Below are positions 12,240-30,059 of a stretch of 47,731 bases of DNA, in pieces. The notes below the pieces were generated by a model that did no database searches, was not told the DNA's origin, and worked only from the letters and a program-made list of their open reading frames with translations. How positions within the stretch are numbered: the first letter of the stretch is position 1; the number at the start of each line of letters is the position of its first letter. A program made the translations under genes and the position numbers. Origin of the DNA: Buttiauxella izardii (GTDB lineage Bacteria > Pseudomonadota > Gammaproteobacteria > Enterobacterales > Enterobacteriaceae). The DNA lies in contig NZ_QZWH01000059.1 in NCBI RefSeq assembly GCF_003601925.1, forward strand, positions 1 to 47,731, given 5' to 3'.

Positions 12240-13571
12240 ATGGCTAGTGAAGCGCAAAAAGTCGGGCTGGTCCCGGTGATGTTAATGGTGGCTGGCAATA
12301 TCATGGGTTCCGGGGTTTTCCTGCTCCCGGCAAACCTCGCCGCCACTGGCGGGATTGCCATCTTTGGCTGGATGGTGACGATTATCGGCGCGTTGTCGTT
12401 ATCAATGGTTTACGCCAAAATGTCCTCGCTCGATGACAGCCCCGGCGGCTCTTACGCCTACGCCCGGCGGGCATTTGGCCCGTTCCTCGGTTATCAAACC
12501 AACCTGCTTTACTGGCTAGCCTGCTGGATTGGTAACGTCGCGATGGTGGTGATTGGCGTCGGGTATCTCAGCTACTTCTTCCCGATGTTAAACCAGCCGT
12601 GGCCGCTCACCGTCACCTGTATCGCGATTCTGTGGCTGTTTGTCGGGCTGAATATTGTTGGCCCGAAAATGATCACTCGCGTGCAGGCGGTCGCCACTAT
12701 TCTGGCGCTCATTCCGATTGTTGCCGTGGCGGTTTTAGGCTGGTTCTGGTTTAAAAGCGACACTTACATGGAAGCGTGGAACGTCAGCGGCAAAGGCACT
12801 TTTGGCGCGATTCAGAGCACATTGAGCGTCACGCTGTGGTCGTTTATCGGCGTTGAAAGTGCGTCGGTGGCCGCAGCGGTGGTGAAAAACCCCAAACGTA
12901 ACGTGCCGATTGCCACTATCGGCGGCGTATTAATCGCTGCGGTTTGTTACGTGCTTTCCAGCACCGCGATTATGGGCATGATCCCCAACGCCGACCTCAA
13001 AGTTTCCGCCTCACCATTCGGCGATGCCGCGCTCATGGCGATGGGGCCGACGGCGGGGGCGATTGTTTCATTCTGTGCCGCAGCCGGGTGTTTAGGTAGC
13101 CTCGGCGGCTGGACGTTACTCGCCGGGCAAACGGCGAAAGCCGCCGCCGACGACGGCCTGTTCCCGCCAATATTTGCCAAAGTGAACAAAGACCAAACTC
13201 CGGTCGCGGGCCTGATTATCGTCGGTGTGTTGATGACACTTTTCCAGCTCGCCAGTATTTCCCCGGACGCCACTTCGCAATTCGCCGTGGTTTCCTCGGT
13301 GTCGGTCATCTTCACGCTGGTGCCTTACATTTATACCTGTGCGGCGTTGATGCTGCTCGGCCAGGGGCATTTGGGCAACCAACGCCTGCCGTTCTTGTTT
13401 ATCACGCTGATTGCCTTTGTTTACTGCATTTGGGCGGTGGTGGGAACGGGTGCGACAGAAGTGATGTGGTCGTTCGTCGCCATCATGGTGATTACCGCGA
13501 TGTACACCGTTAACTATAACCGTCGCCATAAAAACCCCTACCCGCTGGATAAACCCGTGGTTAACGATTAA
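12240..13571 (+). CDS. adiC: Arginine/agmatine antiporter AdiC
   Basis: APC-superfamily inner-membrane exchanger of extracellular arginine for intracellular agmatine, the transport half of arginine-dependent acid resistance. The 443 residues (445 in E. coli) include the substrate-binding stretch [16 protein letters not shown] in helix 1, a Trp in [16 protein letters not shown] corresponding to the gate Trp202, and [20 protein letters not shown] around Trp293. Similarity to AdiC is clearly higher than to CadB or PotE. The start has an AGGAGAGG ribosome site. adiA follows 14 bp downstream, so the two form an operon, unlike E. coli where adiY separates them. Confidence 0.96.
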
Positions 13572-13585
13572 GACAGGAGTGGCTC

Positions 13586-15889
13586 ATGCTTGATCTCGGC
13601 ACGCATCAAAAGCGCAAAATTCTGGTGGTCGACAGCAGCATTCAGGACGTTAACACCGCCAACGGACGCGCAGTGGCGGAACTGATTGAAGCTCTGGAAG
13701 AAAACAACTTTGCGGTGATTTCCGCCGCTACCTTTGAAGATGGTATCGCCACGGTCACGTCCGATGCTTCGTTGTGCTGTATTTTCGTGGACTGGACTTC
13801 CGGCGGCAACGACGACGCCTCACACAGCCAGGCGTTCACGCTGCTGCAAACTATTCGTCGGCGCAATAAAAGCGTGCCGGTGCTGTTGATGGCAGAACAC
13901 TCCTGCGTCGATACGCTAACGCTGGATTCGATGCGGCTGGTGAATGAGTTTGTCTGGATGCACGAGGACACCGCCGAATTTATTGCCGCGCGCGCCCGTT
14001 CGTTGATTCAGCGTTATTACCAACAATTGCTGCCGCCGTTTACCCGGGCGCTATTTAATTACACCCTCGAAAACCCGGAATACTCATGGGCGGCACCGGG
14101 CCATCAGGGCGGCGTAGCGTTTACCAAATCGGCAGTCGGGCGTGAGTTTCTGGATTTCTTCGGTGAGAATTTATTCCGCACCGATACCGGTATTGAACGC
14201 GCCGCAATGGGTTCTTTGCTTGATCACAGCGGGCCGATTAAAGCCTCGGAAACTTACGCCGCCGAAGTGTTTGGCGCACACAAAAGTTACTCGGTTTTAA
14301 ACGGCACCTCCGGCTCCAACCGCGCGATTATGCAGGCGGTGGTCGGCGAGCTTGAAATCGCGCTTTGCGACCGCAACTGCCATAAATCCATTGAACAGGG
14401 CTTAGTGATGACCGGGGCGCTGCCGGTTTATTTTGTGCCGACGCGCAACCGTTTTGGCATCATCGGGCCAATCCCCAAACGCCAGTTCACCCCGGAAAGC
14501 ATTCGTGCGGCCATTGACGCCAACCCGCTCAAGCATGAAGTGGTGAGCGATAAACCGGTGTACGCGGTAGTCACCAACTGTACTTATGACGGCATGTGTT
14601 ATCACGCCGAAGCGGCGCAAGAATTGCTGGCGCAAAGTGTTGACCAGATTCATTTCGATGAAGCCTGGTACGCATATGCCCGCTTTAACCCGATGTACAA
14701 AGGCCGCTTTGCGATGCGCGGCGACCCGAAGGATTTCGACAGTAACGGGCCGACGATTTTTGCCACGCACTCCACGCACAAACTGCTGGCCGCCCTTTCG
14801 CAATCGTCTTACATCCATATTCGTAACGGTAAAAAGCCCGTCGAGCATTCACGTTTTAACGAGTCGTATATGCTGCAAGCCACCACTTCGCCGCTGTATG
14901 CGATTATCGCTTCCAACGAAATTGGTGCGGCAATGATGGACGGCGGCCAGGGCGAAGCGTTGACCCAGGAAGTGATTGTCGAAGCGGTGGATTTCCGTCT
15001 GGCGCTGGCAAAAGTGCATGCGGCGTTTGCTAAAAAAGGCGAGTGGTTCTTCTCGCCGTGGAACGCGCCGACGATTACCGACGCATCCGGCGCGGAGGTG
15101 CCATTTGCCAAAGCGTCGCGGGAACAGCTCACCACCGATCCTTCCTGCTGGACGCTAAAACCCGGCGACAAATGGCATGGATTTGAACAACTTGAGGACG
15201 AATGGTGTCTGCTCGACCCGATCAAAGCGGGGATTTTAGCCCCCGGCATGGGCGATGACGGCAACCTGCTGGAGGCCGGTATTCCGGCGGCGATGGTCAC
15301 GGCGTATCTTGGCGAGCGCGGCATTGTGCCGTCGCGCACCACCGATTTTATGGTGTTATGCCTGTTCTCCATTGGCGTCACCAAAGGCAAATGGGGCACA
15401 CTGATTAACGTGTTGCTGGAGTTCAAAACCGATTACGACAACAACACGCCGCTTAAACGTTGCCTGCCGGATTTGATCAGCGCCGACGCGGCACGTTATG
15501 CGGGAATGGGGCTGAAGGATCTGTGCGATGAAATGTTTAACTACATGAAAACCAGCCAGATGGACAAACTCCAGGCCGAGGCTTTTGGCAATATTCCCGT
15601 TCCGGTGACGCGCCCGCGCATTGCCTTCCAGCAGCATATGGCGGGTAAAGCCGACCATTTGCCTATCGACCAGTTACCGAACCGGATTTCCGCCGTCGGC
15701 GTGATCCCTTATCCGCCGGGGATTCCGATTGTGATGCCGGGCGAAAGTTTTGGTGACGCTGATGGGCCGTGGCTGAAATACATTCGCAGCATCGCGCAAT
15801 GGGGCGAGAAATTCCCCGGTTTTGAGAAAGAACTGGAAGGCGCGGAGTTAATTGATGGGGTTTATCACATTTGGGCGTTGAATCAGTAA
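13586..15889 (+). CDS. adiA: Biodegradative arginine decarboxylase AdiA (PLP-dependent)
   Basis: Converts arginine to agmatine plus CO2, consuming a cytoplasmic proton at low pH. The protein has 767 residues (about 755 in E. coli). It has an N-terminal response-regulator-like wing domain (KILVVDSSIQDV, about residues 10-130), the PLP core with ATHSTHKLLAALSQSS where Lys399 should carry PLP, WAAPGHQGGVAF, HFDEAWYAYARF, and a C-terminal domain with SVIPYPPGIP-like text (GVIPYPPGIPIVMPGE). Substrate assignment rests on the adjacent adiC; the sequence is fairly diverged from E. coli AdiA. RBS is ACAGGAG. No AdiY-type regulator is present nearby. Confidence 0.92.
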   Translation: MLDLGTHQKRKILVVDSSIQDVNTANGRAVAELIEALEENNFAVISAATFEDGIATVTSDASLCCIFVDWTSGGNDDASHSQAFTLLQTIRRRNKSVPVLLMAEHSCVDTLTLDSMRLVNEFVWMHEDTAEFIAARARSLIQRYYQQLLPPFTRALFNYTLENPEYSWAAPGHQGGVAFTKSAVGREFLDFFGENLFRTDTGIERAAMGSLLDHSGPIKASETYAAEVFGAHKSYSVLNGTSGSNRAIMQAVVGELEIALCDRNCHKSIEQGLVMTGALPVYFVPTRNRFGIIGPIPKRQFTPESIRAAIDANPLKHEVVSDKPVYAVVTNCTYDGMCYHAEAAQELLAQSVDQIHFDEAWYAYARFNPMYKGRFAMRGDPKDFDSNGPTIFATHSTHKLLAALSQSSYIHIRNGKKPVEHSRFNESYMLQATTSPLYAIIASNEIGAAMMDGGQGEALTQEVIVEAVDFRLALAKVHAAFAKKGEWFFSPWNAPTITDASGAEVPFAKASREQLTTDPSCWTLKPGDKWHGFEQLEDEWCLLDPIKAGILAPGMGDDGNLLEAGIPAAMVTAYLGERGIVPSRTTDFMVLCLFSIGVTKGKWGTLINVLLEFKTDYDNNTPLKRCLPDLISADAARYAGMGLKDLCDEMFNYMKTSQMDKLQAEAFGNIPVPVTRPRIAFQQHMAGKADHLPIDQLPNRISAVGVIPYPPGIPIVMPGESFGDADGPWLKYIRSIAQWGEKFPGFEKELEGAELIDGVYHIWALNQ

Positions 15890-15905
15890 ACGGGCTTCGC
15901 AAACC

Positions 15906-15933
15906 GTCGGATAAGCCGCAGGCATCATCCGAC
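15906..15933. repeat. REP-like palindrome
   Basis: GTCGGAT (15906-15912) and ATCCGAC (15927-15933) enclose GCC-GCA-GGC, giving the two-part stem with bulge typical of enteric REP elements. It fills the 48-bp gap between the convergent stop codons of adiA and the phosphopantetheinyl transferase gene, so it probably protects both 3' ends. Confidence 0.8.
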
Positions 15934-15937
15934 AAAA

Positions 15938-16552
15938 TTACAAAATCACCCATTCCGCTGCAAAATCATCGGGAAATGGCTGTTCGCCGCAACAGGCGAT
16001 CAGCCGGTCTTCAACGGTCACGTGATGCAAAAAACGGTCTGGCGGGCACAACGTCTGGAGCGGCAAATGCAGCTGATCCATTTGCCAGACCGTTCCTGCG
16101 CGCTGTTTCAGCACCGCTTCGTGGGCCGTCCACAATCGCCAGAACTGCGGGATGTGTTCCACTTCGGGCAATGATTCCAGCCAGTCGCACAAATCCGCAG
16201 CAAAGCTGTGGCGGGCAATAGCCATAAACCTCGCGCGCGGGCGAACTTGCTCAATATCGCAGCCGACTTCACCCACCCCAATCAACACCGCAACGCTGGA
16301 TCCACTGTTGCTGATATTAAATTCAGGCAGCGCCGGATGATACGGTTTACCCTGTGCGGTGCGTTCGAGTTTAGGCAACGCGCCGTTATTAAGCAGCATC
16401 GCCAACAAGACTCGTGCGGCAATCCAGTCCAGGCGGCGATGCCCGGCTGGCGCGTCTTGCAGTAATTGCGCCGACAGCCAGCGATTGGCGAGCGCGTCAT
16501 CAGACAAACGCGCCACTTCGCCCACCGCCAGCCGATAACCGTTTACTGCCAA
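15938..16552 (-). CDS. 4'-phosphopantetheinyl transferase (Sfp/AcpT type) of the APE cluster
   Basis: Expected to transfer phosphopantetheine from CoA to the serine of the carrier proteins ApeE and ApeF. The 204-residue protein carries the Mg-binding motif VGCDIEQVRPR and the second motif FWRLWTAHEAVLKQRAG. The usual Lys of WxxKEAxxK is His here, but the Glu and last Lys are kept. It is the last gene of the cluster and overlaps apeR by 10 bp, so it is translated with the ketosynthase genes. Converges with adiA across a REP-like element. Confidence 0.88.
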   Translation of the reverse strand: MAVNGYRLAVGEVARLSDDALANRWLSAQLLQDAPAGHRRLDWIAARVLLAMLLNNGALPKLERTAQGKPYHPALPEFNISNSGSSVAVLIGVGEVGCDIEQVRPRARFMAIARHSFAADLCDWLESLPEVEHIPQFWRLWTAHEAVLKQRAGTVWQMDQLHLPLQTLCPPDRFLHHVTVEDRLIACCGEQPFPDDFAAEWVIL

Positions 16553-17772
16553 CGGCGCAGCACCAGCGACGTGTTAATGCCACCGAAAGCGAAGTTATTG
16601 CTTTGCACAAATTCGGTGTCGATTTTGCGCGCCGTACCCATGATGTAATCCAACTCGCCGCAGGCTTCGTCCGGGGAGGTTAAATTCAGCGTTTCGGCAA
16701 ACCAGCCTTCGCGCATCATTTCGATACTCATCCACGCTTCCAGCGCACCGCAAGCCCCGAGCGTATGGCCAAAATAACTTTTCAGCGAAGAGATTGGCGT
16801 ATTCGCCCCGAAAACTGCCGCCGTGGCGTGGCTTTCGGCAATATCGCCGCGATCGGTGGCGGTGCCGTGAGCATTGATATAGCCAATGTCGCTGGCTGCC
16901 AGCCCCGCCGATTGCAGGCCGCGCTCAATACAAATCTGCATGGTTTCTTTCTGCGGCTGGGTAATATGTGCCGCATCGCAGTTGGTGTGGAAGCCGACGA
17001 TTTCAGCATAGATCGTCGCACCACGCGCCAGAGCGTGATCCAGATCTTCGAGGATCAACGTCCCCGCCCCTTCGCCGATCACCAGGCCGTCACGCTGTTT
17101 ATCAAAAGGCGATGGCGTGGTTTTTGGCTGGTCATTGCGCTGGCTGGTGGCAAACAGTGTGTCAAACACCGCCGCTTCTGATGGACATAATTCTTCCGCA
17201 CCGCCCGCCACCATTACGGTCTGGTAGCCATGGCGAATTGCTTCCCAGGCATAACCAATCGCCTGGCTGCCCGATGTACAGGCGCTTGAGGTTGGAATCA
17301 CACGCCCGCGCAAACCAAAGAACAACCCGGCGTTCACCGCCGCAGTGTGCGGCATCATCTGCACATAAGTGGTGCCGGTGATATTACGGGTGTGTTTTTC
17401 GGTAAGCATGGTGGCAAATTCACTCACCGGCCCGGTGCTCCCGGTGGAAGACCCGTAGGCAATGCCGGTTTCACCGCTTGTGAGAATCGGGTCGCCGAGC
17501 AAACCGGATTTTATTAACGCCAGTTCAGTGGCGCGAGTGGCGAGTAGCGAAACGCGCCCCATCGCCCGAATGCGTTTGCGGGTGTAATGTTCAGGCAAAG
17601 TGAAATTATCCACCGGTGCGCCGAGCATAGTGTTGAGGCCGTCGTAAATTTGCCATTCCGGCATATTCCGCACCGCGTTTTGGCCAGACTTCAAACCCGC
17701 CGCCACAGCCTGCCAGTTTTCACCCAGTGCCGTTACGCCGCCCATTCCAGTGACTACTACGCGCTTAATCAC
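16543..17772 (-). CDS. apeR: Beta-ketoacyl-ACP synthase ApeR (FabF-like)
   Basis: Thiolase-fold condensing enzyme of aryl polyene synthesis, proposed to act in an early or alternative chain-extension round. The 409 residues show all three catalytic positions: Cys165 in TSSACTSGSQ, His in NAHGTATDRGD, and His in YFGHTLGACGALEA. The end is FVQSNNFAFGGINTSLVLRR, typical of KAS II. Overlaps apeQ by 4 bp (ATGA) and the transferase gene by 10 bp. Because it has the complete triad it should be catalytic, in contrast to ApeC. Confidence 0.92.
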   Translation of the reverse strand: MIKRVVVTGMGGVTALGENWQAVAAGLKSGQNAVRNMPEWQIYDGLNTMLGAPVDNFTLPEHYTRKRIRAMGRVSLLATRATELALIKSGLLGDPILTSGETGIAYGSSTGSTGPVSEFATMLTEKHTRNITGTTYVQMMPHTAAVNAGLFFGLRGRVIPTSSACTSGSQAIGYAWEAIRHGYQTVMVAGGAEELCPSEAAVFDTLFATSQRNDQPKTTPSPFDKQRDGLVIGEGAGTLILEDLDHALARGATIYAEIVGFHTNCDAAHITQPQKETMQICIERGLQSAGLAASDIGYINAHGTATDRGDIAESHATAAVFGANTPISSLKSYFGHTLGACGALEAWMSIEMMREGWFAETLNLTSPDEACGELDYIMGTARKIDTEFVQSNNFAFGGINTSLVLRRWQ

Positions 17773-18500
17773 AGCATGCCTCCATTGATGGAGATCACCT
17801 GGCGTGTGACATAACCCGCCACGGGCGACATCAAATAACGCGCAAGCCCAGCCACTTCTTCCGGCTGGCCCATTCGTTGCAACGGAATCAGGCGCATCGC
17901 TTCATTTAATGCGGCTTCTTCCATTTCAATCATGCCGGTATCGATTAAACCGGGTGCGATGCAGTTGACGGTGATTTTGCGTTTCGCCAGTTCAATAGCC
18001 AGTGCTTTAGTTGCACCGATAATTCCGGCTTTTGCGGCGCTGTAATTCACCTGCCCACGGTTGCCCATCAGGCCTGAAACCGAGGAAAGCGTGATAATTC
18101 GCCCGCCTTTGCGCAGGCCAATCATCGGCATCACACACGGCTGGATAACATTATAAAAACTGTCGAGATTGGTACGGATGACGCCGTCCCAGTCCTCGTC
18201 GGTAAGCGCCGGAAATGCGCCGTCGCGGGTCATTCCCGCATTGTTGACCACGCCCCAGTATGCGCCGTGCGTTTCAATATCGGCTTCAATCACGCTGCGG
18301 CATTGCTCGCGGTTGGCGCTATCAAATTGCATCACGCGCCCGGTTCCGCCCTGAGCTTTAATATCCTCAAGCGTTTGCTGTGCGCCTGCTTCGTCACGAT
18401 GGTAATGCACCACCACGGCAAATCCGTCGGCGGCGAGGCCCAGAGCTATCGCCTTGCCAATTCCTTTGCTGGCTCCGGTTATGAGTACCGTTTGTTTCAT
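17769..18500 (-). CDS. apeQ: 3-ketoacyl-ACP reductase ApeQ (FabG-like SDR)
   Basis: NADPH-dependent reduction of the beta-keto group after each elongation. The 243-residue short-chain dehydrogenase has the cofactor motif LITGASKGIGKA at the N-terminus, VNNAGMTRDG, the catalytic Ser in ITLSSVSGLMG and the YSAAKAG active-site YxxxK, ending in the FabG-like tail VISINGGML. A 76-bp AT-rich gap separates it from apeP upstream, the largest gap in the cluster, so a separate promoter or processing site is possible there. Confidence 0.93.
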   Translation of the reverse strand: MKQTVLITGASKGIGKAIALGLAADGFAVVVHYHRDEAGAQQTLEDIKAQGGTGRVMQFDSANREQCRSVIEADIETHGAYWGVVNNAGMTRDGAFPALTDEDWDGVIRTNLDSFYNVIQPCVMPMIGLRKGGRIITLSSVSGLMGNRGQVNYSAAKAGIIGATKALAIELAKRKITVNCIAPGLIDTGMIEMEEAALNEAMRLIPLQRMGQPEEVAGLARYLMSPVAGYVTRQVISINGGML

Positions 18501-18576
18501 CTTGCTGCTATCCCATTAAAATAATTATTCTAGTTTTTAATTATCAACGTCGTCGGGGGCGCTGCGCTTGCCCGAG

Positions 18577-19035
18577 CTAAAAAAGCTGTGCTAATTCATT
18601 ATTATCGGGCTGATAGGTATTCACTCGCCCGCTCGCCAGTACGTTGCCGTCTGCGAGAATTTGTCCTTCAAAACTACCGATTTTGTCATCACGCATCAGC
18701 AGCGTGACGTAACAATCCAACACCAAACCGTTTGGCAGATTTCCCGCTGGGCAGCGCAAACCGCGCCCACCGAGCAACATCCCCACGCGGCTGGCTTCTT
18801 CGCCGTTATTCATCGAATGCCAGCCAGACCAGACACCGACAGTCTGCGCAATCAGCTCAACGGCAAACCACCCCGGCAGATTGCCATCCGCATCTAAAAA
18901 CGGGGCCAGCACGCCATTTTGGCTCACCGTCACTCGGCAATGCGCATTTTCTTGTCCAACCGCCACCACCGTTTCGAGCAAGCACATCGGCGCTTCGTGC
19001 GGCAAATAGTGGTGAGGGGCAAGAAAATCAGTCAT
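18577..19035 (-). CDS. apeP: Beta-hydroxyacyl-ACP dehydratase ApeP (hotdog fold)
   Basis: One of the two dehydratases of aryl polyene synthesis, thought to remove water to give the conjugated double bonds. The 152-residue single hotdog domain starts LPHEAPMCLLETVVAV and contains GWFAVELIAQTVGVWSGWH, the long central hotdog helix with the acidic catalytic residue, typical of ApeP/ 3-hydroxydecanoyl-like dehydratases. It overlaps apeO by 8 bp. The second dehydratase, ApeI, is encoded 7 kb upstream in the same cluster. Confidence 0.88.
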   Translation of the reverse strand: MTDFLAPHHYLPHEAPMCLLETVVAVGQENAHCRVTVSQNGVLAPFLDADGNLPGWFAVELIAQTVGVWSGWHSMNNGEEASRVGMLLGGRGLRCPAGNLPNGLVLDCYVTLLMRDDKIGSFEGQILADGNVLASGRVNTYQPDNNELAQLF

Positions 19036-20200
19036 GAGAAACTCCTAAAATCAGGCAGGCATTATTGCCGCCAAAAGCGAACGAGCTCGACAGCATTGCA
19101 GGTTTAATGAGTGGTTTTGGCGCGGTGAGTAAACCACAAACCGCCAGGCTCGCGTCTTGATGCGCGTCAGTGAAATCCTGTGCGGGCAACGGCAAATTTT
19201 GCGACAACAATAAATAGCAAAGCGCGGCTTCACAGGCTCCAGCGGCCCCTAAAGTGTGGCCCGTCAGATGCTTAGTCGAGCTGGAAGGAATGCTGTCGCC
19301 AAAAAGTTGATTCACCACTTTGGCTTCGATTTCGTCATTCAGCCGCGTGGCGGTGCCGTGCATATTAATATAGCCAATATCATGCGGCTCAAGCTGAGCT
19401 TCCCGCAGCGCCATTTCTATTGCACGAATCGCCCCCGCGCCTTCAGGGTGTGGAGCCGACATATGCCACGCATCCGATGATTCGCCCACTCCTAACAAAC
19501 GCACTTTCCCCGGCTCTTTGGTGAGCAAAATCAACACGCCCGCTTCGCCGATGGTGATCCCGTCGCGCTCGGCGCTGAATGGCTTGCAGCGCACGTCGCT
19601 TAAGGATTCCAGGCTGGCGAAGCCGTTAACCGGCATGCGACTTAAAGTATCCGCACCGCCAACAATCGCCGCATCCACCATGCCGGATTCAATCAGCCGT
19701 TTGCCGGTAATAATCGCCCGTGCGCTCGACGAGCAGGCGGTAGAAAGAGTTAATGCCGGGCCAAACAGTTGCAGATAATCGCTGAGAAAACGCGACGGAT
19801 CGCCCAGTTCTTGCTGCCCGTAACGATAAGCGTCTGGCGGGTTTCCGGCGTGGCTGCCGCTGACCATGCGGTCGCCTTCATCCAGCCCGGAGGTGCTGGT
19901 GCCGAGGATCACCGCCACGCGAGAATCGCCGTATGTCGCTATCGCTTGATTAACCTGCGGGCGAATTTGTGCCAGCGCGGCCAGCAATAAACGGTTGTTG
20001 CGGCTGTTGTATCGCGCCATTTCCGGGGCAATCTCAGGCAACTCTGCGGTCACGCGTCCAACCCAACATTCACCTTGCTGCCGCCAGCCGTCAGTATCCG
20101 GCCCCATGCCTGGCGCAACGCCTGTCTGCAAATTTGCCGCGATCTCATCCAGGTTGTTGCCCAGCGCATTGACCATGCCCACGGCTGAAAATGTAATCAT
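19028..20200 (-). CDS. apeO: Beta-ketoacyl-ACP synthase ApeO
   Basis: Main chain-elongating ketosynthase; in characterised systems it works as a heterodimer with the chain-length factor ApeC. The 390 residues show Cys156 in LSTACSSSARA, His in NMHGTATRLNDE, and His in KHLTGHTLGAAGACEA, so the catalytic triad is complete. The C-terminal SSSFAFGGNNACLIL fits the family. The start lies 2 bp after the apeN stop and the end overlaps apeP by 8 bp. Confidence 0.92.
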   Translation of the reverse strand: MITFSAVGMVNALGNNLDEIAANLQTGVAPGMGPDTDGWRQQGECWVGRVTAELPEIAPEMARYNSRNNRLLLAALAQIRPQVNQAIATYGDSRVAVILGTSTSGLDEGDRMVSGSHAGNPPDAYRYGQQELGDPSRFLSDYLQLFGPALTLSTACSSSARAIITGKRLIESGMVDAAIVGGADTLSRMPVNGFASLESLSDVRCKPFSAERDGITIGEAGVLILLTKEPGKVRLLGVGESSDAWHMSAPHPEGAGAIRAIEMALREAQLEPHDIGYINMHGTATRLNDEIEAKVVNQLFGDSIPSSSTKHLTGHTLGAAGACEAALCYLLLSQNLPLPAQDFTDAHQDASLAVCGLLTAPKPLIKPAMLSSSFAFGGNNACLILGVSHD

Positions 20201-20202
20201 GA

Positions 20203-20778
20203 TTAGCTGTCCAGATGCTGAATACGGATGACATAACCAAAACGAAGATGATGCACGATCACCGGCTGGCGGATTCCGTCGCGCATCAGATATTGAATGG
20301 TTTCAATCAACTCGCCCTGGTCGTCACGCAGCTCGCGCCGCGAATCGATATCTTTTAGCGTCCAGCCCTTTGGCAATTGCGGCTGCCAGGCGCTTATCGG
20401 CCAGTAGCTCAACATAATATCGGCAAGAACCTGGCTGGCTGGAGGCAATTCTGGCAGCGTGATGGATTGTTCGGTTTTAATCCCCGAGGGATCGTACGTC
20501 AAACGGAATAAACGAATCCCCAACGGCGACAAACCTGCCAGCATGATTTTCTGCTGGTCGGCATTCAGCAGCACCATCAGCGATTGTGTTTTGCCCTTCA
20601 CTTCGGCGCTTAAAAGCTGTTGCTCGGTGATAGACGGCGAAATCCCCGGCGCGGGTAACGTCACTAAGGTGCCTGGTTTTAACCATGCTTGTGGGCGCGT
20701 GTCGTCTGGTTTTTTGCTACTGCACGCACTGAGTAATAAGGCGCTAAACAGTAAGGCGAGGGTCGGTAGTTTTTTCAT
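20203..20778 (-). CDS. apeN: APE-cluster lipoprotein ApeN (DUF3261-like)
   Basis: Small predicted lipoprotein of unknown biochemical role, regularly found next to the MMPL exporter in APE clusters. The N-terminus MKKLPTLALLFSALLLSACSS has a charged start, hydrophobic core and lipobox LSAC (Cys19). With Ser-Ser after the Cys, outer-membrane sorting is likely. The start overlaps the apeM stop by one base (TAATG). Likely part of the pigment export route with ApeL and ApeM. Confidence 0.82.
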   Translation of the reverse strand: MKKLPTLALLFSALLLSACSSKKPDDTRPQAWLKPGTLVTLPAPGISPSITEQQLLSAEVKGKTQSLMVLLNADQQKIMLAGLSPLGIRLFRLTYDPSGIKTEQSITLPELPPASQVLADIMLSYWPISAWQPQLPKGWTLKDIDSRRELRDDQGELIETIQYLMRDGIRQPVIVHHLRFGYVIRIQHLDS

Positions 20779-24091: not shown

Positions 24092-25785
24092 CCGAACTCC
24101 TTTCCTGGTTCTGGCGGCAACTGCCAGAAATCATAAAAATTAAACCAATCGAGTGGCGAACGCAGCGCATAAAACTCAAGGCGCTGCGCGTAAAGATCGA
24201 TATTTTCTTGCAACGCCTGCTGGCGCGTGGAGCGTGGCAGCAATAACGGGTCAGCAAAATGTTCCGCATGAATGCGCAGTTTGCCCTGTTCACGCAACAC
24301 CATCATCAGAATGACCGGGCATCGTAATGCGGCGGCGAGAATAAACGGCCCTTGCGGGAATGGCGCCGGGCTGCCCATAAACTGGCTCCAGCATACACGC
24401 CGTTCGCCACCGCGCTGCGGGTTAACCGCAATGCGGTCACCAACAATCGCCACCCATTCGCCGGCTTCAAGTTTTTCTTGCAGCATCATGGCGGTTTCCG
24501 GGCCAATGTGACTCACCGGTAATAAATTCACGCCCGCTTGTGGGGCGATCTCTTCAATGATCTGGCGAAAACGCTGGGCGTTGTCGGTAAAGACTAGCGC
24601 ATTAATGATTAACCCGGCCTCAACCTGCGCCAGTGCGCGGCTGGCTTCGATGTCACCCAAGTGTGCGGCAAGAATGAGTTTCCCCTGCCCCGCCTGCGGC
24701 TGTAAAACCTCACGGCTGCCTGGCGCAAATTCAATGTCACGGCCCCACAGAATATCACCACGCCAGGCGGCGATTTTGTTGAGCATTGCATCACCAAAAC
24801 GTAAGAAATGGCGATAGCTGTTCAACCCTTTTGGCAACGAGATTTGCTGGATTTCCGCCTGCTGACGAACCCGCGCCAGCCAGTGTTGCGACGCTTTTCG
24901 CTGGGTGCTTCCCGTCAGCCACATCCACGCCACCACCGGGTAGAGCAGCGCGTTAAAGGCGCGACGCCCCAGGCGCTGATAAATGTTAAGCATCAGGCGC
25001 ATTCCCGCCAGCCCTTTGCGTTCAGGCACTTGCGCCCAGTGGGCGGTTTTACGACGCCGGGCCAGCAGCGCCGGAATACGCGGCAACATGCTGAAAAACA
25101 GTCGCGTATGCATCCAGGAAATGCGCACGTTGTCGCGCAGCGCATCAAAATGCGAAATTCCATCCGGCGGGTAAATCACGCGGGTGCGCAAAAAACGGCT
25201 GTCGGTGCCTGCCCAGTACAAACGCACCATGATTTCCGTGTCGAAATCCATGCGTTTACCGGGGCGGTGCTCGGCAACCACCGCCAGCGTCGCCGCCAGC
25301 GGATAGACGCGAAAACCGCACATGCTGTCTTTTAATGACAGCGATAACGTTTCAATCCACACCCAAAAGTGCGTGATGTAGCGCCCGTAAAGGCGCGATT
25401 TCGGCACCGATTCGTCGTATTCTGGCATGCCGGAAACCAGGCTTTCAGGATGGGCGCGGGCTTCATCTAAAAAGCGCGGCACATCTTCGATGCAATGTTG
25501 CCCGTCCGCATCAAGCTGAATGGCGTGAGTAAACCCCGCCTGCGCAGCCGCTTTCAGCCCGGTTATCACCGCCTCGCCTTTGCCCTGATTGGTTTCAAGT
25601 TCAATCACGGTGACGCCGGTTAATTGCGCCAGATGCTGTTTGGTCGCCGATTCGCTGCCATCGTCAACAATAATGCAAGGCAGTTCATAGGGTTGCAGCC
25701 GCGCCAGCACTGCGGCCATCGTCGCGCCGTGGTTGTAACAAGGGATCACCACGCAGGGGTGAAAAGCCGAAGGCGCTACGGACAT
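24085..25785 (-). CDS. apeJ: Two-domain glycosyltransferase 2 / lysophospholipid acyltransferase ApeJ
   Basis: A fusion of 566 residues. The N-terminal half is a family-2 glycosyltransferase: PCVVIPCYNHGATM, CIIVDDGS, and IQLDADGQHCIEDVP with the DXD-like site. The C-terminal half is an LpxL-like acyltransferase with an HX4E motif in LILAAHLGDIEASRA and MGSPAPFPQGPFILAAALR. It likely builds the lipid or sugar-lipid anchor that holds the aryl polyene in the outer membrane; the exact acceptor is not known to me. Overlaps apeI by 10 bp and apeK by 7 bp. Confidence 0.86.
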   Translation of the reverse strand: MSVAPSAFHPCVVIPCYNHGATMAAVLARLQPYELPCIIVDDGSESATKQHLAQLTGVTVIELETNQGKGEAVITGLKAAAQAGFTHAIQLDADGQHCIEDVPRFLDEARAHPESLVSGMPEYDESVPKSRLYGRYITHFWVWIETLSLSLKDSMCGFRVYPLAATLAVVAEHRPGKRMDFDTEIMVRLYWAGTDSRFLRTRVIYPPDGISHFDALRDNVRISWMHTRLFFSMLPRIPALLARRRKTAHWAQVPERKGLAGMRLMLNIYQRLGRRAFNALLYPVVAWMWLTGSTQRKASQHWLARVRQQAEIQQISLPKGLNSYRHFLRFGDAMLNKIAAWRGDILWGRDIEFAPGSREVLQPQAGQGKLILAAHLGDIEASRALAQVEAGLIINALVFTDNAQRFRQIIEEIAPQAGVNLLPVSHIGPETAMMLQEKLEAGEWVAIVGDRIAVNPQRGGERRVCWSQFMGSPAPFPQGPFILAAALRCPVILMMVLREQGKLRIHAEHFADPLLLPRSTRQQALQENIDLYAQRLEFYALRSPLDWFNFYDFWQLPPEPGKEFGC

Positions 25786-26126
25786 AGTTTAATCTTTCCG
25801 CTACTCGCTGGAATCTCGCCCTGGTCAGTCAGCAAGGTGTAAGAAAAACTCAATACGCTGCGCTGTGCGTCCCAGTTTAAAGTCAGATTCAGTGTGGTGT
25901 CAGGCACAATCGGGCGCTGGAATTTCACGCTGTCGATGGCGCTAAAACGCAGACCCGGTGCGAGTTGCGCGCCGTAAGCCATCACCCAATCCAGTTGCGC
26001 GACGCCGGGTAAAATCGGCTGCGTGGGGAAATGCCCCGCAAACCAGCCTAAAGTTGCCGGAATCGCCAGGCGCAAACAAAGTTTGTTTTCTTCGGGTTGT
26101 GAGCGCTGTAACTCAACGGGTTTCAT
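25776..26126 (-). CDS. apeI: Beta-hydroxyacyl-ACP dehydratase ApeI (FabZ-like)
   Basis: Second dehydratase of the aryl polyene pathway; 116 residues forming one hotdog domain. The FabZ-type active site is visible as FAGHFPTQPILPGVAQLDWV, with catalytic His near residue 32 and the acidic residue in the following helix. A longer in-frame extension upstream lies inside apeH and is a frame artefact; the ATG at 26126 gives MKPVELQRS, overlapping the apeH end by 14 bp. Confidence 0.9.
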   Translation of the reverse strand: MKPVELQRSQPEENKLCLRLAIPATLGWFAGHFPTQPILPGVAQLDWVMAYGAQLAPGLRFSAIDSVKFQRPIVPDTTLNLTLNWDAQRSVLSFSYTLLTDQGEIPASSGKIKLCP

Positions 26127-27432
26127 CAAATAATTCCTGTAATTGCGTCCATGCGCGTTTGCTTTGGCTATTGAGCGGAATGCGCTCGACGATGCGCCAG
26201 TAACGCGGAATGGCGACCGGTTCAAGCCAGGCGCGAAGCGCTTCTCGCCACAGTTGCTTGTTGCCGTCTTGCCCGCAAGGGACAACGACCGCGCCCAGCA
26301 CAATACGATTGCCGCGCAGTATTGGAACCACTGCCGCATCTTCAATGCCGGGTAACGCCTGCAAACGGCGTTCAATTTCAGTCAGTGAGATGCGCTTTTC
26401 TTCTATTTTTACGATGCGGTCACGACGCCCGGATAAACGAAAACTGCCCTGCGGCGTAAATTCGAGAATGTCATCCAGTTGCACAGGATTACTGCCAATT
26501 AATGGCGATTCAACCCACCAGCCATCTTCATGGGCAATAAAATTCACCAACGGGAATGGCAGCCATTTGGGCGCGGGTTGAACATGTTCTCGCCACGCTA
26601 GTACTCCGGTTTCGGTGGTGCCGTAGATTTCTGAAACCGGTGTGTTAAGCCAGGCGCGGGCGGTTTGCGCGGTGTCGTCATCGAGTTTTCCGGCAGCGGA
26701 AATGACTCTCTTAAAGTCAGGTGCCGCCAGATTTGCATCGAGACGCTTTAAAAATGCCGGGCTGCTGATAAACAGCAGCGGAGTGGATGTGTGGGCCGCG
26801 AGTTGTTCCGGGAAGTGAATCATCGCTGCATCGGTTGCTAAACCGAGCGCCATCGGCAGCATCACGCGGAAGGTGAAGCCATAAAGATGCTGATGGGAAA
26901 CGGAACCGACCACGCGGCAATCACCTAAACTTTCGCCCCACAATGCGGCAAGCCACGCAATTTCTTCATCCAGTGCGGATAACGATTTAACGATTTGTGC
27001 CGGTTCGCCGGTGGAACCCGAGGTAAACAGCGCCACGCCTGCATTGGCAGGAATCGACTCAAACGGTTGAATCGCCGTGCAGGCTAAACCCTTCGGGTTG
27101 ATGACCGGGCAAATGAGGTTCAGTGCCGCATCGCTCAACACGCCATAAAAATGGATTTGCTGCTCGCGCAGTTGTGCTTCACGGCTATGGCCGGGTATAA
27201 CTGGCGTTTTTCCGGCGTGGAGCGTGGCTAATAGCGCGGCAATAAAATCGTAGCTGTTGTCAAAACAAAGCGCCCAACGCTCGCCGGGCTGAGTTTTAAG
27301 CCAGCTGTAAATACGATGAACGTCGTTGATTAAATCGGCCTGCGTCCAACGCGTCTGCCCTTCAAACGCCACAACATGCAGCGGATGACGGTGGGAATTT
27401 AGCCAGTTTGCGAGAGGTAAAGGTTTATTCAT
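26113..27432 (-). CDS. apeH: Aryl/acyl-activating AMP ligase ApeH
   Basis: ANL-superfamily ligase of 439 residues that activates the aryl starter (4-hydroxybenzoate in studied systems) with ATP and loads it on an ApeE/F carrier. The phosphate-binding loop LFTSGSTGEPAQIVKS, the aromatic motif EIYGTTETGVLAW and the hinge FRLSGRRDRIVKIEEKRIS are all present. The C-terminal lid is shorter than in long acyl-CoA synthetases. Overlaps apeG by 8 bp and apeI by 14 bp. The starter identity is inferred from the family, not from residues I can read. Confidence 0.9.
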   Translation of the reverse strand: MNKPLPLANWLNSHRHPLHVVAFEGQTRWTQADLINDVHRIYSWLKTQPGERWALCFDNSYDFIAALLATLHAGKTPVIPGHSREAQLREQQIHFYGVLSDAALNLICPVINPKGLACTAIQPFESIPANAGVALFTSGSTGEPAQIVKSLSALDEEIAWLAALWGESLGDCRVVGSVSHQHLYGFTFRVMLPMALGLATDAAMIHFPEQLAAHTSTPLLFISSPAFLKRLDANLAAPDFKRVISAAGKLDDDTAQTARAWLNTPVSEIYGTTETGVLAWREHVQPAPKWLPFPLVNFIAHEDGWWVESPLIGSNPVQLDDILEFTPQGSFRLSGRRDRIVKIEEKRISLTEIERRLQALPGIEDAAVVPILRGNRIVLGAVVVPCGQDGNKQLWREALRAWLEPVAIPRYWRIVERIPLNSQSKRAWTQLQELFDETR

Positions 27433-27994
27433 AGCGACGTTTCACCCGTTGCCTGACCAGCCATTCGCCAGCAAATAATAGCCCCATCAACACATAGCTC
27501 ATCATGCCGTTCCACAGCGTCCACCAGTGAATATTGCCCGCAAGGCTTGTCCACAGCGCAATACTTCCGTTAACGATAAAGAACACGCACCAGACTTGCG
27601 TCACACGGCGGGTATAACGCACACCGGCGGGTGGGAGATCCCCTTCGCGCCAGCGGGCCAGCCGCTCCACTATCGACATGCGGCTAAACAGCGACGAACC
27701 AAATAACGCCAGCATCACGCCATTCACCACCACCGGATACCACAGCAAAAGTTGTGCTTCACGCATCCAGATGCTGGCAACGCATAATACCGCTCCTGCA
27801 ATTGCCAGCCCTTTAAAGGCGCGGCTTAAGGCTCCGGTTTTGCCCCGTAAGGTACACAAACGCAGCACAAAGCACAGCGCCAGAATCGGCAGCAAAATGT
27901 GTAAATGGGGATATGCGATGACGAGCCAGACGGCAAAGGGCCAACCGATGACGGCCAGCCCTCCAGCAATACTCAGCGCTCGTTTTGCCAGCAC
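27425..27994 (-). CDS. apeG: Conserved inner-membrane protein ApeG (COG4648)
   Basis: A membrane protein of 189 residues without an assigned reaction. Hydrophobic segments are visible at about residues 10-45, 65-105 and 130-180, giving five or six helices. The start is GTG at 27994, 4 bp after the apeF stop, and its end overlaps apeH by 8 bp. Proteins of this kind occur in nearly all APE clusters between the carrier proteins and the ligase, so a role in membrane assembly of the synthase or in lipid coupling is a reasonable guess. Confidence 0.82.
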   Translation of the reverse strand: MLAKRALSIAGGLAVIGWPFAVWLVIAYPHLHILLPILALCFVLRLCTLRGKTGALSRAFKGLAIAGAVLCVASIWMREAQLLLWYPVVVNGVMLALFGSSLFSRMSIVERLARWREGDLPPAGVRYTRRVTQVWCVFFIVNGSIALWTSLAGNIHWWTLWNGMMSYVLMGLLFAGEWLVRQRVKRRYE

Positions 27995-27998
27995 GCGA

Positions 27999-28247
27999 TT
28001 AAGACCCGCTATGCAGACGCTCTACCGCGTCCACGACATCCTGTACGGTGCGAACCGTTTTGAAATCTTCCGGTTTGATTTTTTTGCCGGTGCGTTTTTG
28101 CAGATGAACGACCATATCGACCGCATCAATGCTGTCGAGATCCAGGTCTTCGTATAAACGTGCCTGCGGGGTAATTTGTTCAGGAGACAGTTCAAATAAC
28201 TTCACCAGTAACCCGGTGACTTCCTGATAAATATCTTCTTTATTCAT
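27999..28247 (-). CDS. apeF: Acyl carrier protein ApeF
   Basis: Carrier protein of 82 residues. The phosphopantetheine attachment site is Ser39 in DLDLDSIDAVDMV, and the KTGKKIKPEDF-like stretch (KRTGKKIKPEDF) follows helix 2. Second of a tandem ACP pair with apeE, 19 bp apart. Expected to carry the starter or growing polyene during synthesis; the two carriers differ in sequence, so they are probably not interchangeable. Confidence 0.93.
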   Translation of the reverse strand: MNKEDIYQEVTGLLVKLFELSPEQITPQARLYEDLDLDSIDAVDMVVHLQKRTGKKIKPEDFKTVRTVQDVVDAVERLHSGS

Positions 28248-28266
28248 AACGTACTCGTGGTTTTAA

Positions 28267-28539
28267 TCAGGCGCTGTGCGCAGGGTTTTGGCTCGAAATA
28301 AATGCAGCGAGGTTGGCGACGGAATAAAAATGTTCGCGCATCGCTTCATTTTCAGCGGATAACACCACGCCGAAACGTTTTTTTACCGCAAGGCCTAATT
28401 CCAGTGCATCAATGGAATCAAGTCCGAGGCCATCGTTACCAAATAACGCGGCATCACTTTCAATCTCATCAACACCGATCTCTTCGAGATTCAAGGTGTC
28501 GATAATGAGTTGTTTAATATCAGTCTCTAAAGATTCCAT
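28267..28539 (-). CDS. apeE: Acyl carrier protein ApeE
   Basis: Carrier protein of 90 residues with attachment Ser42 in GLGLDSIDALELGLAV and a helix-3 region KRFGVVLSAENEAM. It starts 15 bp after apeD and sits directly before apeF. Clusters of this type nearly always encode two ACPs; the cognate transferase is encoded at the far end of the operon. Confidence 0.92.
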   Translation of the reverse strand: MESLETDIKQLIIDTLNLEEIGVDEIESDAALFGNDGLGLDSIDALELGLAVKKRFGVVLSAENEAMREHFYSVANLAAFISSQNPAHSA

Positions 28540-28554
28540 ATAACCATCCGAGTC

Positions 28555-29325
28555 TTAACGAGAATCAGGAACTAACTCCTGACACAAAAATTGGCTCAGA
28601 CGACGCGCCGCAAGTGCGGGGGCTTCATCGTGATTTGCCATAAATTCCTGGCTGTCGATCCGTTGTTTAACACTCACGGTGATCATCGGTTTACGCTTGG
28701 GTATCTGATACCAGCGGCTGTGTTTATCCAGATAACGTTGGTCACAATAAATATGGACTAAACGTAGAGGACAGCCACTGCGCACGGCAATATTGGCCGC
28801 GCCACGCTGAATAACCAGCGGTTCGCCAGGTTTGGTGCGCGTCCCTTCAGGGAAAATCAGTATCGCCTCCCCTTCCGCCAGGCGTTTTTGGCTCTCCGGG
28901 AGTAATGTTTCGCCCTGGCTGTTGACCAGATAATCCGCTGCCTTTATCACACCCCGGAAACAGGGATTGTGTTTCAGGCTCGCTTTCACCAGGCACCCTA
29001 TATGCGGCGCCTGGGAGGCGATAAATACGTAGTCCAGCAGCGTCGGATGGTTAGCCACAATCAAACATCCACGATCGTTTGTTAACTGTTCGCAACCTTC
29101 AAAACGGTAGTCGAACACGCCCAGCCCGCGCCCGATGCGTAAAAATAACCGGAAACTGGCGGCAATGCTACGGCGCGCAATCTCGCGGCGCTGGCGAGTA
29201 TTACGCACGATCAGTATCAGTAAATTAAACCACACCAGTGAAAGAATCAGTCCGCCGCTGCCAAATAGCACAAACAAAAAGCCGGTCATTAGCACTCGCC
29301 AGTACCATTTAATGCGCGACCACAT
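28555..29325 (-). CDS. apeD: 1-acylglycerol-3-phosphate acyltransferase-like protein ApeD
   Basis: Inner-membrane PlsC-type acyltransferase of 256 residues. An N-terminal hydrophobic hairpin (about 12-38) is followed by the catalytic HX4D motif in IVANHPTLLDYVF and the acceptor-binding motif LIFPEGTRTKPGEP. It may attach the polyene acyl chain to a glycerol-based lipid. Its start overlaps the apeC stop by one base (TAATG). Together with the C-terminal half of ApeJ it gives the cluster two distinct acyltransferases. Confidence 0.9.
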   Translation of the reverse strand: MWSRIKWYWRVLMTGFLFVLFGSGGLILSLVWFNLLILIVRNTRQRREIARRSIAASFRLFLRIGRGLGVFDYRFEGCEQLTNDRGCLIVANHPTLLDYVFIASQAPHIGCLVKASLKHNPCFRGVIKAADYLVNSQGETLLPESQKRLAEGEAILIFPEGTRTKPGEPLVIQRGAANIAVRSGCPLRLVHIYCDQRYLDKHSRWYQIPKRKPMITVSVKQRIDSQEFMANHDEAPALAARRLSQFLCQELVPDSR

Positions 29326-30059
29326 TAGTTGCGGCTCCAGCGCCAGGACATACGCTCGCCTGCCAGGGTAAACGCCGCTTGCTGGCCGAGCCAGCCGTGC
29401 AAAAACGTCAGACTTTGTGGTAAATCTTGCGATTCGCTGTTTTGACGAGGAGTCGTTTCACAACAAATTTGCGAGCCGGCTTCCAGTAATAACGCGACGG
29501 CGAACGGGATTTTGACGGCTTCACCAGCAAGATGCGAGTGGTAAAATTCTGGAATCAATCCATCGAAATCCACCAGCAAAACACGCTGATAACCCGCGTG
29601 ATGCAAGGAAGTCACTTCGACTAATGCCTGAGCAAAGCTGTCGTATCCGGCTGAAACGGACGAGGAAACAAGCGCTTGTTGCGCAGCGATTGTCGTGTTG
29701 CCCACCGCTGAGTTATGTACCGACATCGCAAAATCTGTTGGCGAAAGACTTTCGTTTTCGGCAAGTGCAGTCAAAATTCGGAAATTTCGCTCCAGTTCGC
29801 CATGACGGCTGGAAAAGACCAGGGCGTCAACTTTATGGCGCGACAGGATGGCTAACGCGCAATCAACAGCGAGACGACTCCCGGAAGCCAGGCGACGCGC
29901 GGTCATCATCGGCAAATGGCGGCATTTAGCTATAGGGGCGCTCAACGCGATTTCAGCCGGGACCTGGCTCCACGCCTGCCACTGGTCGCTTTCGCATAAA
30001 CCGGGTGCGCTCGCCTGCCAGTCGATAATGTTAAACGTTAACTTCATGCTCAGTACCAT
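29325..30059 (-). CDS. apeC: Chain-length-factor-like ketosynthase subunit ApeC
   Basis: Shortened ketosynthase-like protein of 244 residues (240 if started at the second Met, 30047, MKLTFNIIDW). The segment where a ketosynthase would have its nucleophile elbow reads MSVHNSAVGNTTIAAQ, with no Cys, so it should be non-catalytic and act as chain-length factor with ApeO. First gene of the 17-gene APE operon. The promoter must lie in the AT-rich 204 bp between it and ymdA; I could not fix a single -35/-10 pair. Confidence 0.87.
   Translation of the reverse strand: MVLSMKLTFNIIDWQASAPGLCESDQWQAWSQVPAEIALSAPIAKCRHLPMMTARRLASGSRLAVDCALAILSRHKVDALVFSSRHGELERNFRILTALAENESLSPTDFAMSVHNSAVGNTTIAAQQALVSSSVSAGYDSFAQALVEVTSLHHAGYQRVLLVDFDGLIPEFYHSHLAGEAVKIPFAVALLLEAGSQICCETTPRQNSESQDLPQSLTFLHGWLGQQAAFTLAGERMSWRWSRN

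What the first reader, a model, noticed from the sequence alone, without database searches (positions are those of the whole stretch)
12240..30059. An 18-kb acid-resistance plus aryl-polyene block splits the conserved ymdA-ymdB pair
ymdA and ymdB are neighbours in E. coli between csgC and clsC. Here they are 18 kb apart, with adiCA and 17 APE genes between them, while everything on each side keeps the E. coli order. No integrase, IS or tRNA marks the block's edges. Either the block was gained by homologous exchange, or it is ancestral here and was lost in E. coli. Placing a pigment cluster beside curli and serX is suggestive because, as I recall, the CFT073 APE cluster lies on the serX-linked island.
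Basis: partly seen in the sequence, partly recalled or inferred. Interest (0 to 1): 0.72.

Follow-up and report, generated by a model that had tools for sequence, protein, structure and literature searches.

The report
Old pigment locus beside curli genes
In a Buttiauxella bacterium, 17 pigment genes and a two-gene acid-resistance operon sit between two genes that are neighbours in E. coli; comparison with relatives suggests that the pigment genes are old residents of this spot that E. coli no longer has there, and not a newly acquired island.

Summary
Observation confirmed: in a Buttiauxella genome, adiC-adiA and a 17-gene aryl-polyene (APE) module (16 ape genes plus a phosphopantetheinyl transferase) lie between ymdB and ymdA, which adjoin in E. 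coli K-12. The block is two modules with separate histories. APE occupies this spot in 12 of 12 Buttiauxella genomes examined and in Dryocola, Cedecea and a MAG. In the same order and orientation it lies beside clsC-opgC-opgGH in Erwinia, Pantoea, Mixta and Winslowiella. G154, sister to the Buttiauxella group, keeps only an orphan apeL between ymdA and ymdB, followed by fhuD-fhuB-TonB receptor in the order that follows apeR in Winslowiella. The APE site is best read as ancestral and lost in E. coli. adiCA (7 of 12 Buttiauxella; Dryocola; G013) is a separate, older-than-genus resident; one strain without it keeps a piece of the adiA end, so loss is shown there. The serX link is not supported: the CFT073 APE falls in another clade. 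The gene families are known; the locus history is the news. The root of the APE tree is unresolved, so separate insertions in Erwiniaceae and Enterobacteriaceae are not excluded.

The parts
11570..12157 (-). ymdB, left neighbour (ORF; the true start is probably about 21 codons further in)
   Evidence: NF001660 300 bits, cut-off 271; hits in other genera begin near residue 20
12240..13571 (+). adiC, arginine/agmatine antiporter
   Evidence: NF007929 816 bits, cut-off 574; 82% identical to K-12 AdiC; best solved relatives are AdiC
13586..15889 (+). adiA-like arginine decarboxylase of the subtype that lies next to adiC
   Evidence: NF011603 1032 bits, under its cut-off 1167; OKR_DC domains; best solved relative 2vyc; 52% to K-12 AdiA
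15938..16552 (-). AcpT-like phosphopantetheinyl transferase, last gene of the APE module
   Evidence: PF01648 37 bits; 35% to K-12 AcpT; found after apeR in 15 of 15 fetched loci of the Buttiauxella group
16543..17772 (-). apeR, ketosynthase
   Evidence: NF006587 765 bits, cut-off 470
17769..18500 (-). apeQ, ketoreductase (FabG2)
   Evidence: TIGR01831 433 bits, cut-off 338.85
18577..19035 (-). apeP, dehydratase
   Evidence: PF22817 ApeP-like
19028..20200 (-). apeO, ketosynthase
   Evidence: NF006618 521.5 bits, cut-off 407
20203..20778 (-). apeN, DUF3261
   Evidence: PF11659
20778..23096 (-). apeM, MMPL/RND-type exporter
   Evidence: PF03176
23068..23673 (-). apeL, LolA-like
   Evidence: PF03548
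23666..24091 (-). apeK, thioesterase
   Evidence: PF13279
24085..25785 (-). apeJ, glycosyltransferase/acyltransferase
   Evidence: PF00535
25776..26375 (-). apeI, dehydratase (long ORF; the ApeI match begins at residue 84, so the true start is probably internal)
   Evidence: PF22818 ApeI-like
26113..27432 (-). apeH, AMP-forming ligase
   Evidence: PF00501
27425..27994 (-). apeG, membrane protein; named by position and by conservation in other ape loci
   Evidence: no Pfam or NCBIfam match; tblastn matches in the ape loci mapped
27999..28247 (-). apeF, acyl carrier protein
   Evidence: NF003757 138 bits, cut-off 65
28267..28539 (-). apeE, acyl carrier protein
   Evidence: NF006617 82.3 bits, cut-off 70
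28555..29325 (-). apeD, acyltransferase
   Evidence: PF01553
29325..30059 (-). apeC, chain-length factor
   Evidence: PF13723 219 bits; 80 named relatives kept
30060..30263 (-). apeC leader, with a terminator-like hairpin just after ymdA (30262-30232)
   Evidence: scan, alignment of 11 loci, paired changes on both sides at 5 of 9 pairs
30264..30575 (-). ymdA, right neighbour
   Evidence: 34% to K-12 YmdA and same position after csgC; no Pfam or NCBIfam match

Best explanation
The interval between ymdA-csg and ymdB-clsC-opgC-opgGH is an old home of the APE pigment cluster. APE was there before Buttiauxella, Dryocola and Cedecea split and, most likely, before Enterobacteriaceae and Erwiniaceae (Erwinia, Pantoea and kin) split. 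The ancestral order was probably apeC...apeR-fhuD-fhuB-TonB receptor-(ymdB)-clsC-opgC-opgGH. Lineages lost different pieces: E. coli lost all of it, G154 kept one ape gene and the iron-uptake genes, Buttiauxella kept APE and lost the iron genes. An adiC-adiA operon settled between ymdB and the end of the APE module before Buttiauxella and Dryocola split and has since been lost in some Buttiauxella. The two modules act separately: the ape genes, with their own PPTase, make an aryl-polyene lipid and move it to the outer membrane; AdiC imports arginine, AdiA decarboxylates it with use of a proton, and AdiC exports agmatine. Shown: gene content, positions, trees within groups, one deletion scar. 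Inferred: the direction of change at the deepest node, and all functions (from family knowledge).
For: APE between ymdB and apeC's upstream neighbours in 12 of 12 Buttiauxella and in Dryocola, Cedecea, a MAG and G148. 16 of 49 named genomes have apeC and opgG on one contig in the window's order and orientation, 13 of them Erwinia, Pantoea, Mixta, Winslowiella type (contig lengths; genes mapped for all but E. oleae and P. latae). Collinear apeR-fhuD-fhuB-TonB receptor in Winslowiella (L127) and G202 (L117), and orphan apeL-fhuD-fhuB-TonB receptor-ymdB in G154 (L114), the sister of the Buttiauxella group. TonB receptor between apeR and ymdB/clsC in 14 of 19 opg-site loci mapped outside Buttiauxella. 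The APE tree and the OpgGH tree both hold the Buttiauxella group together at 100. adiCA: 7 of 12 Buttiauxella, Dryocola and G013 at the same place; deletion scar in strain B2.
Against: The three main APE groups are not joined with support (12), and opg-site copies form one clade only if Pectobacteriaceae copies, which lie elsewhere, are counted in (p-AU 0.45 with them, 0.0015 without). G110, an opg-site genome, is next to the Buttiauxella group in the APE tree (100) but not in the OpgGH tree. In the APE tree Winslowiella, G202 and G169 go with Erwinia and Pectobacteriaceae, in the OpgGH tree with Pantoea. No csg or ycd gene was found within up to 10 kb upstream of apeC in the Erwiniaceae-type loci, so only the opg side of the site is shared with them. 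Most genera of the sample lack APE at this site: 7 of 52 apeC-positive genomes have it there. Erwinia loci L118, L119 and also L101, L112, L123 lack the TonB receptor. No adiCA scar was found in five other adiCA-less loci.
Confidence: 0.75

Rival explanations
1. The opg-ymdB-csg interval is an insertion hot spot and APE entered it at least twice, once in Erwiniaceae and once in the Buttiauxella line (perhaps with G110).
For: The root of the APE tree is unresolved and the Erwiniaceae copies group with Pectobacteriaceae. Other genes (TonB receptor, fhuDB, a mechanosensitive channel, an EAL-GGDEF protein, adiCA) come and go in the same interval.
Against: Shared order apeR-fhuD-fhuB-TonB receptor in Winslowiella, G202 and (with orphan apeL) G154 would have to arise twice.
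Confidence: 0.18
2. The whole 18-kb block entered this genome or genus recently by homologous exchange.
For: Conserved flanks and no mobile-element mark at the edges; APE and adiCA GC mildly high.
Against: APE in 12 of 12 Buttiauxella and in the neighbouring genera; the APE tree keeps the Buttiauxella group together; adiCA varies independently of APE.
Confidence: 0.03
3. The APE here and the APE of the CFT073 serX-linked island are the same acquisition, moved a few kilobases.
For: Both lie near csg.
Against: CFT073 groups at 100 with 13 other enteric copies and not with the window; it carries apeA-apeB, which the window lacks, and has no PPTase of its own according to PMC8253772 (passage).
Confidence: 0.01
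4. Curli, APE and AdiCA are held together by selection as one biofilm and stress supercluster, perhaps with read-through from csgBAC.
For: csgBAC, ymdA and the ape genes lie in a row on one strand.
Against: A conserved hairpin that looks like a terminator follows ymdA; 5 of 12 Buttiauxella lack adiCA; Erwiniaceae-type loci have APE at the opg side with no csg gene found within up to 10 kb upstream.
Confidence: 0.03

Closest known systems
APE_Ec cluster of E. coli CFT073 (apeA-apeR)
   Same: apeC to apeR in the same order and on one strand
   Different: No apeA lipoprotein or apeB methyltransferase gene found; own PPTase after apeR; chromosomal site between ymdB and ymdA; other clade
APE clusters downstream of yhhT in Enterobacter, Lelliottia, Leclercia, Atlantibacter, Silvania (21 of the 69 loci L018-L086)
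   Same: Same core genes; resident between housekeeping genes; 8 of the 21 also lack apeA and apeB hits
   Different: Other site and other clade (6 of the 14 rows of that clade are yhhT-site copies)
APE clusters beside clsC-opgC-opgGH in Erwinia, Pantoea, Mixta, Winslowiella
   Same: Same site on the opg side, same order and orientation
   Different: apeA present where seen; no window-type PPTase found after apeR; no csg or ymdA beside them
adiA-adiY-adiC arginine-dependent acid resistance of E. coli K-12
   Same: AdiC 82% identical; AdiA of the same fold family
   Different: Order adiC-adiA without adiY; AdiA 52% identical and in a separate clade; other chromosomal site

Membership tests
APE biosynthetic gene cluster | KS/chain-length-factor pair (ApeO, ApeC), two ACPs, ApeI and ApeP dehydratases, ketoreductase ApeQ | tested here: met
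   PF13723, NF006618, PF00550 twice, PF22818, PF22817, TIGR01831
APE biosynthetic gene cluster | ligase ApeH and export genes apeL-apeM-apeN | tested here: met
   PF00501, PF03548, PF03176, PF11659
APE biosynthetic gene cluster | aryl-polyene product | not testable with these tools
   needs chemistry
APE_Ec type (CFT073) | apeA lipoprotein and apeB methyltransferase present | tested here: not met
   no tblastn hit in L007-L017, L090-L100 or L001 (window), while the same queries hit many other loci; apeB in 0 of 13 whole genomes, a call without a positive control of its own
adi arginine-dependent acid resistance | AdiC antiporter at equivalog level | tested here: met
   816 bits against cut-off 574
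adi arginine-dependent acid resistance | AdiA at equivalog level | tested here: inconclusive
   1032 bits against cut-off 1167, far above the lysine models (620 or less); best solved relative is E. coli arginine decarboxylase
adi arginine-dependent acid resistance | E. coli order adiA-adiY-adiC | tested here: not met
   adiC-adiA with no adiY hit in the window
adi arginine-dependent acid resistance | survival at low pH that depends on arginine | not testable with these tools
   needs an assay
Genomic island | integrase, IS or tRNA at the edges; direct repeats | tested here: not met
Genomic island | patchy presence among close relatives | tested here: not met
   for APE: 12 of 12 Buttiauxella; adiCA alone is patchy, 7 of 12

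The most novel reading that the evidence does not exclude
Enterobacteriaceae and their Erwinia-type relatives have two native chromosomal addresses for a single APE cluster: the opgGH-ymdB-(ymdA-csg) address in Erwiniaceae and the Buttiauxella group, and the yhhT-acpT-nik address in the Enterobacter-Escherichia group. The ymdA-ymdB junction and the orphan acpT of E. coli K-12 would then be the two places where the same pigment once stood. Of this, one apeC per genome was seen in 52 of 52 positive genomes and the yhhT side in 21 loci; acpT at the far end of the yhhT address was seen directly only in L039, because the other loci end about 10 kb after apeC.
Probability: 0.4. Interest if true: 0.55.

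Novelty: new member of a known kind. Interest (0 to 1): 0.4.

Why it matters
One paper on the E. coli cluster notes that APE clusters of Enterobacteriaceae lie on pathogenicity islands and could be mobile (PMC8253772, passage). Here the same pigment looks like a long-term resident of one chromosomal interval in several genera, lost piece by piece. That would give a reference site against which loss, relocation and re-gain of APE in the family can be counted, and would make ymdA-ymdB adjacency in E. coli a derived state. The in-cluster PPTase is a testable partner of ApeE and ApeF.

Tried and rejected
Recent import of the whole block: rejected on 12 of 12 presence of APE in the genus and on the trees. 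serX-island origin: rejected on the APE tree. Curli-APE read-through: lowered by the conserved hairpin after ymdA, although the scan found no more terminator-like sites in that region than in shuffled DNA (5 against a mean of 4.8). Composition as a test of origin: not decisive (one of the 12 own-genome stretches fetched, L203 of 8 kb, was left out). A sigma-70-like promoter for adiC: none found in the window or in L098, which says little. One clade of opg-site copies without Pectobacteriaceae: rejected. The count of adiCA changes on the Buttiauxella-group tree (4 changes; 67 of 500 shuffles as low) is not informative by itself. The trees and the second tree of 48 are quick trees without the mixture model.

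Literature (open-access library only): aryl polyene with gene cluster (304 papers, 25 listed), with Buttiauxella (1), with curli and Enterobacteriaceae (4), with acpT (1), with Erwinia, Pantoea and synteny (3), with opgG (0); ymdA with ymdB and csgC (2); Buttiauxella with arginine decarboxylase (6) and with curli (8). Passages were read in PMC8253772, PMC9125672, PMC10469690 and PMC12873547; of the others only listings were seen. No passage read and no title or abstract start listed describes this location, which does not show that it is unpublished.
Full report
What is there. The window lies in a Buttiauxella genome: the eight best named relatives of its ApeC are Buttiauxella contigs, 75-84% identical; its own genome is G000, contig C59. 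Between ymdB and ymdA lie adiC, adiA, an AcpT-like phosphopantetheinyl transferase and 16 ape genes in the CFT073 order apeC to apeR. K-12 has ymdA and ymdB side by side in an otherwise matching region. Gene letters follow the CFT073 table and text of PMC8253772 (passages) and the order.

Two modules, not one. In the 11 other Buttiauxella genomes, ymdB and apeC lie on one contig 13.4-17.3 kb apart in 11 of 11, and tblastn maps show all 16 ape genes between them in 11 of 11. AdiC at 97-98% identity is in the gap in 6 of 11 (7 of 12 with the window); the other 5 have only permeases of 40% identity or less. ymdA was not found in B. warmboldiae.

APE is old at this site. Among the 80 named loci kept, csg genes stand just upstream of apeC in 11 (L007-L017: eight Buttiauxella, one MAG, Dryocola, Cedecea) and in none of the 69 others; ymdA is found in 10 of the 11. 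Of 49 named genomes that could be searched, 16 have apeC and opgG on one contig in the order and orientation of the window (coordinates; contig identity by length): the MAG, Dryocola, Cedecea and 13 of Erwinia, Pantoea, Mixta or Winslowiella type. One of these, EnVs2, is labelled Enterobacter ludwigii but groups with Pantoea-type genomes in the OpgGH tree. In two (L047, L058) the contig ends inside or at the start of the ape genes, so nothing can be said; the other 31 do not show the arrangement, and contig breaks may hide some. In a sample of 159 genomes of the family, apeC was found in 52, once in each at E<=1e-40, and 7 of 52 (two of them Buttiauxella, own genome included) have it 18-24 kb from opgG on the same strand and contig. 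In the fetched DNA apeR is followed by ymdB and/or clsC, then opgC and, where the stretch reaches it, opgG; in Winslowiella L127 the stretch reaches only ymdB, and opgG lies about 18 kb beyond it.

Neighbours tell the same story. A TonB-dependent receptor lies between apeR and ymdB/clsC in 14 of 19 opg-site loci mapped outside Buttiauxella; L101, L112, L118, L119 and L123 lack it. In Winslowiella (L127) and G202 (L117) the order is apeR-fhuD-fhuB-TonB receptor. G154 (L114) is sister to the Buttiauxella-Dryocola-Cedecea group in the OpgGH tree (SH-aLRT 100) and has csg-ymdA, an orphan apeL (60% over 187 of 201 residues, E 5e-78), fhuD, fhuB, TonB receptor, ymdB: the same order, with the other ape genes gone. 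G022, in which no apeC was found, keeps a TonB receptor between ymdB and ycdZ. These look like intermediate states between the Winslowiella and the E. coli arrangements.

Trees. A tree of five APE proteins from 44 genomes has three supported groups: the Buttiauxella-Cedecea-Dryocola group with G110 (100); Erwinia-Pantoea-type copies with those of Pectobacteriaceae (100); and 14 enteric copies including CFT073 (100). How they join is unresolved (12). Inside the groups there is agreement with the OpgGH tree (window with B. agrestis, Cedecea with G148, the Pantoea-type pairs) and also disagreement: G110 is not next to the Buttiauxella group in the OpgGH trees, Winslowiella, G202 and G169 go with Erwinia and Pectobacteriaceae in one and with Pantoea in the other, and Pectobacteriaceae nest inside the Erwinia-type copies only in the APE tree. 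The AU test does not reject one clade of opg-site plus Pectobacteriaceae copies (p 0.45) nor of Buttiauxella-type plus enteric copies (p 0.25), and rejects opg-site copies without Pectobacteriaceae (p 0.0015). The label 'opg site' needs 4 changes on either tree, against about 15 in shuffles. So presence at this site is well supported for the ancestor of the Buttiauxella group and likely, not proven, back to the split from Erwiniaceae.

The other address. In 21 of the 69 loci L018-L086 the ape genes start just downstream of yhhT, which in K-12 precedes acpT and nikA. acpT beyond the ape genes was seen only in L039, where the cluster is cut short; the other loci end about 10 kb after apeC. PMC8253772 (passages) says that the CFT073 cluster has no PPTase of its own and cites work by De Lay and Cronan on an orphaned AcpT (only the reference entry was seen). 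The window's PPTase ORF follows apeR in 15 of 15 fetched loci of the Buttiauxella group, is the only strong match in its own genome (the second hit has 29 bits), and is 35% identical to K-12 AcpT.

adiCA. The window's AdiA belongs to a subtype encoded directly beside adiC: 76-98% identical to 14 other such copies and 52-53% to the nine copies of the other clade, K-12 included (positions). It sits at the ymdB site in 7 of 12 Buttiauxella, in Dryocola and in G013; in G013 the order is ycdZ-ymdA-adiA-adiC-broken ymdB-opgC, with no APE in the genome search and no csg at that place. G145, whose copy is next closest, has it elsewhere or at least with no ycd or opg hit in the 10 kb fetched. Of 19 family genomes with AdiC at E<=1e-180, 4 (own genome included) have it within 10 kb of opgG. 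Strain B2 (L094) lacks adiCA but keeps 153 bp that match the adiC leader of two other strains at 90-91%, followed about ten bases later by a piece that matches the end of adiA in the window and seven other loci (77-104 bp, 81-92%; 84 bp at 89% and E about 4e-28 for the window). That is a deletion scar. Five other adiCA-less loci (L090, L097, L099, L100, L112) gave only matches of 10-17 bases (best E 0.008) or none. The window and B. agrestis share an adiC leader about 100 bp shorter than in five other Buttiauxella.

Function. From PMC8253772 (passages): the E. coli cluster increased biofilm formation and is linked there to protection from oxidative stress; deletion of apeA kept pigment but changed the extract; apeB is the likely methyltransferase of the aryl head. 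The window has no hit to apeA or apeB, so an unmethylated head group is predicted (inference). Eight of the 21 yhhT-site loci also lack both hits, so this is not special to Buttiauxella. AdiC reaches the equivalog cut-off; AdiA does not, but its best solved relative is E. coli arginine decarboxylase (904 bits against at most 508 for lysine decarboxylases). That AdiC and AdiA work together in acid resistance is established for E. coli (recalled) and inferred here.

Regulation. csgBAC, ymdA and the ape genes lie on one strand. A hairpin follows ymdA in the 11 loci aligned, with changes on both sides at 5 of 9 pairs and two pairs broken in two sequences each; a conserved stretch precedes apeC. 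The terminator scan by itself was at chance level, so the case rests on conservation.

Composition. Against 11 stretches of the same genome: APE GC 0.548 (background 0.520, sd 0.017), adiCA 0.557 (0.522, sd 0.029), csg 0.424 (0.520, sd 0.025); the share of background stretches with an equal or larger tetranucleotide distance is 0.03, 0.10 and 0.01.

Verdict. A real and conserved arrangement of known gene families. The result of interest is historical: E. coli appears to have lost an old APE home, and adiCA is a separate tenant of the same interval.

Noticed in passing
38404-38491 and 38663-38750: Two tandem tRNA-Ser(GGA) genes where K-12 annotates a single serX in the fetched stretch.
   Followed up: no
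38909-46382: Two long RND-type ORFs with near-identical starts (38909-42022 and 43272-46382, both -) around a lipoprotein-like adaptor ORF (42036-43190) and next to a TetR-like ORF (46621-47238), just beyond the tRNA-Ser pair (named by eye from the N-termini, no family search).
   Followed up: no
30264-35210: The curli segment is the most deviant part of the window in composition (GC 0.424 against 0.520), more than the block that was flagged.
   Followed up: partly
12158-12239: The adiC leader of the window and B. agrestis lacks about 100 bp, including an inverted repeat, that five other Buttiauxella keep; adiCA expression may differ.
   Followed up: partly
L129 (G186) 1365-5055: A genome that groups with Hafnia in the OpgGH tree also has the adiC-adiA subtype, 9.3 kb from opgG and in the same relative orientation; the link of adiCA with this locus may be older than described here.
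   Followed up: no
L102 (G013), about 8028-8198, and G078: ymdB is a short remnant with stops in G013 and is split in the Leclercia genome G078.
   Followed up: no
L120-L128: Erwinia/Pantoea-type loci carry a conserved protein of about 385 residues between the TonB receptor or apeR and clsC (also L101, L117) with no Pfam match in the one copy scanned (L123:4215-5372).
   Followed up: no
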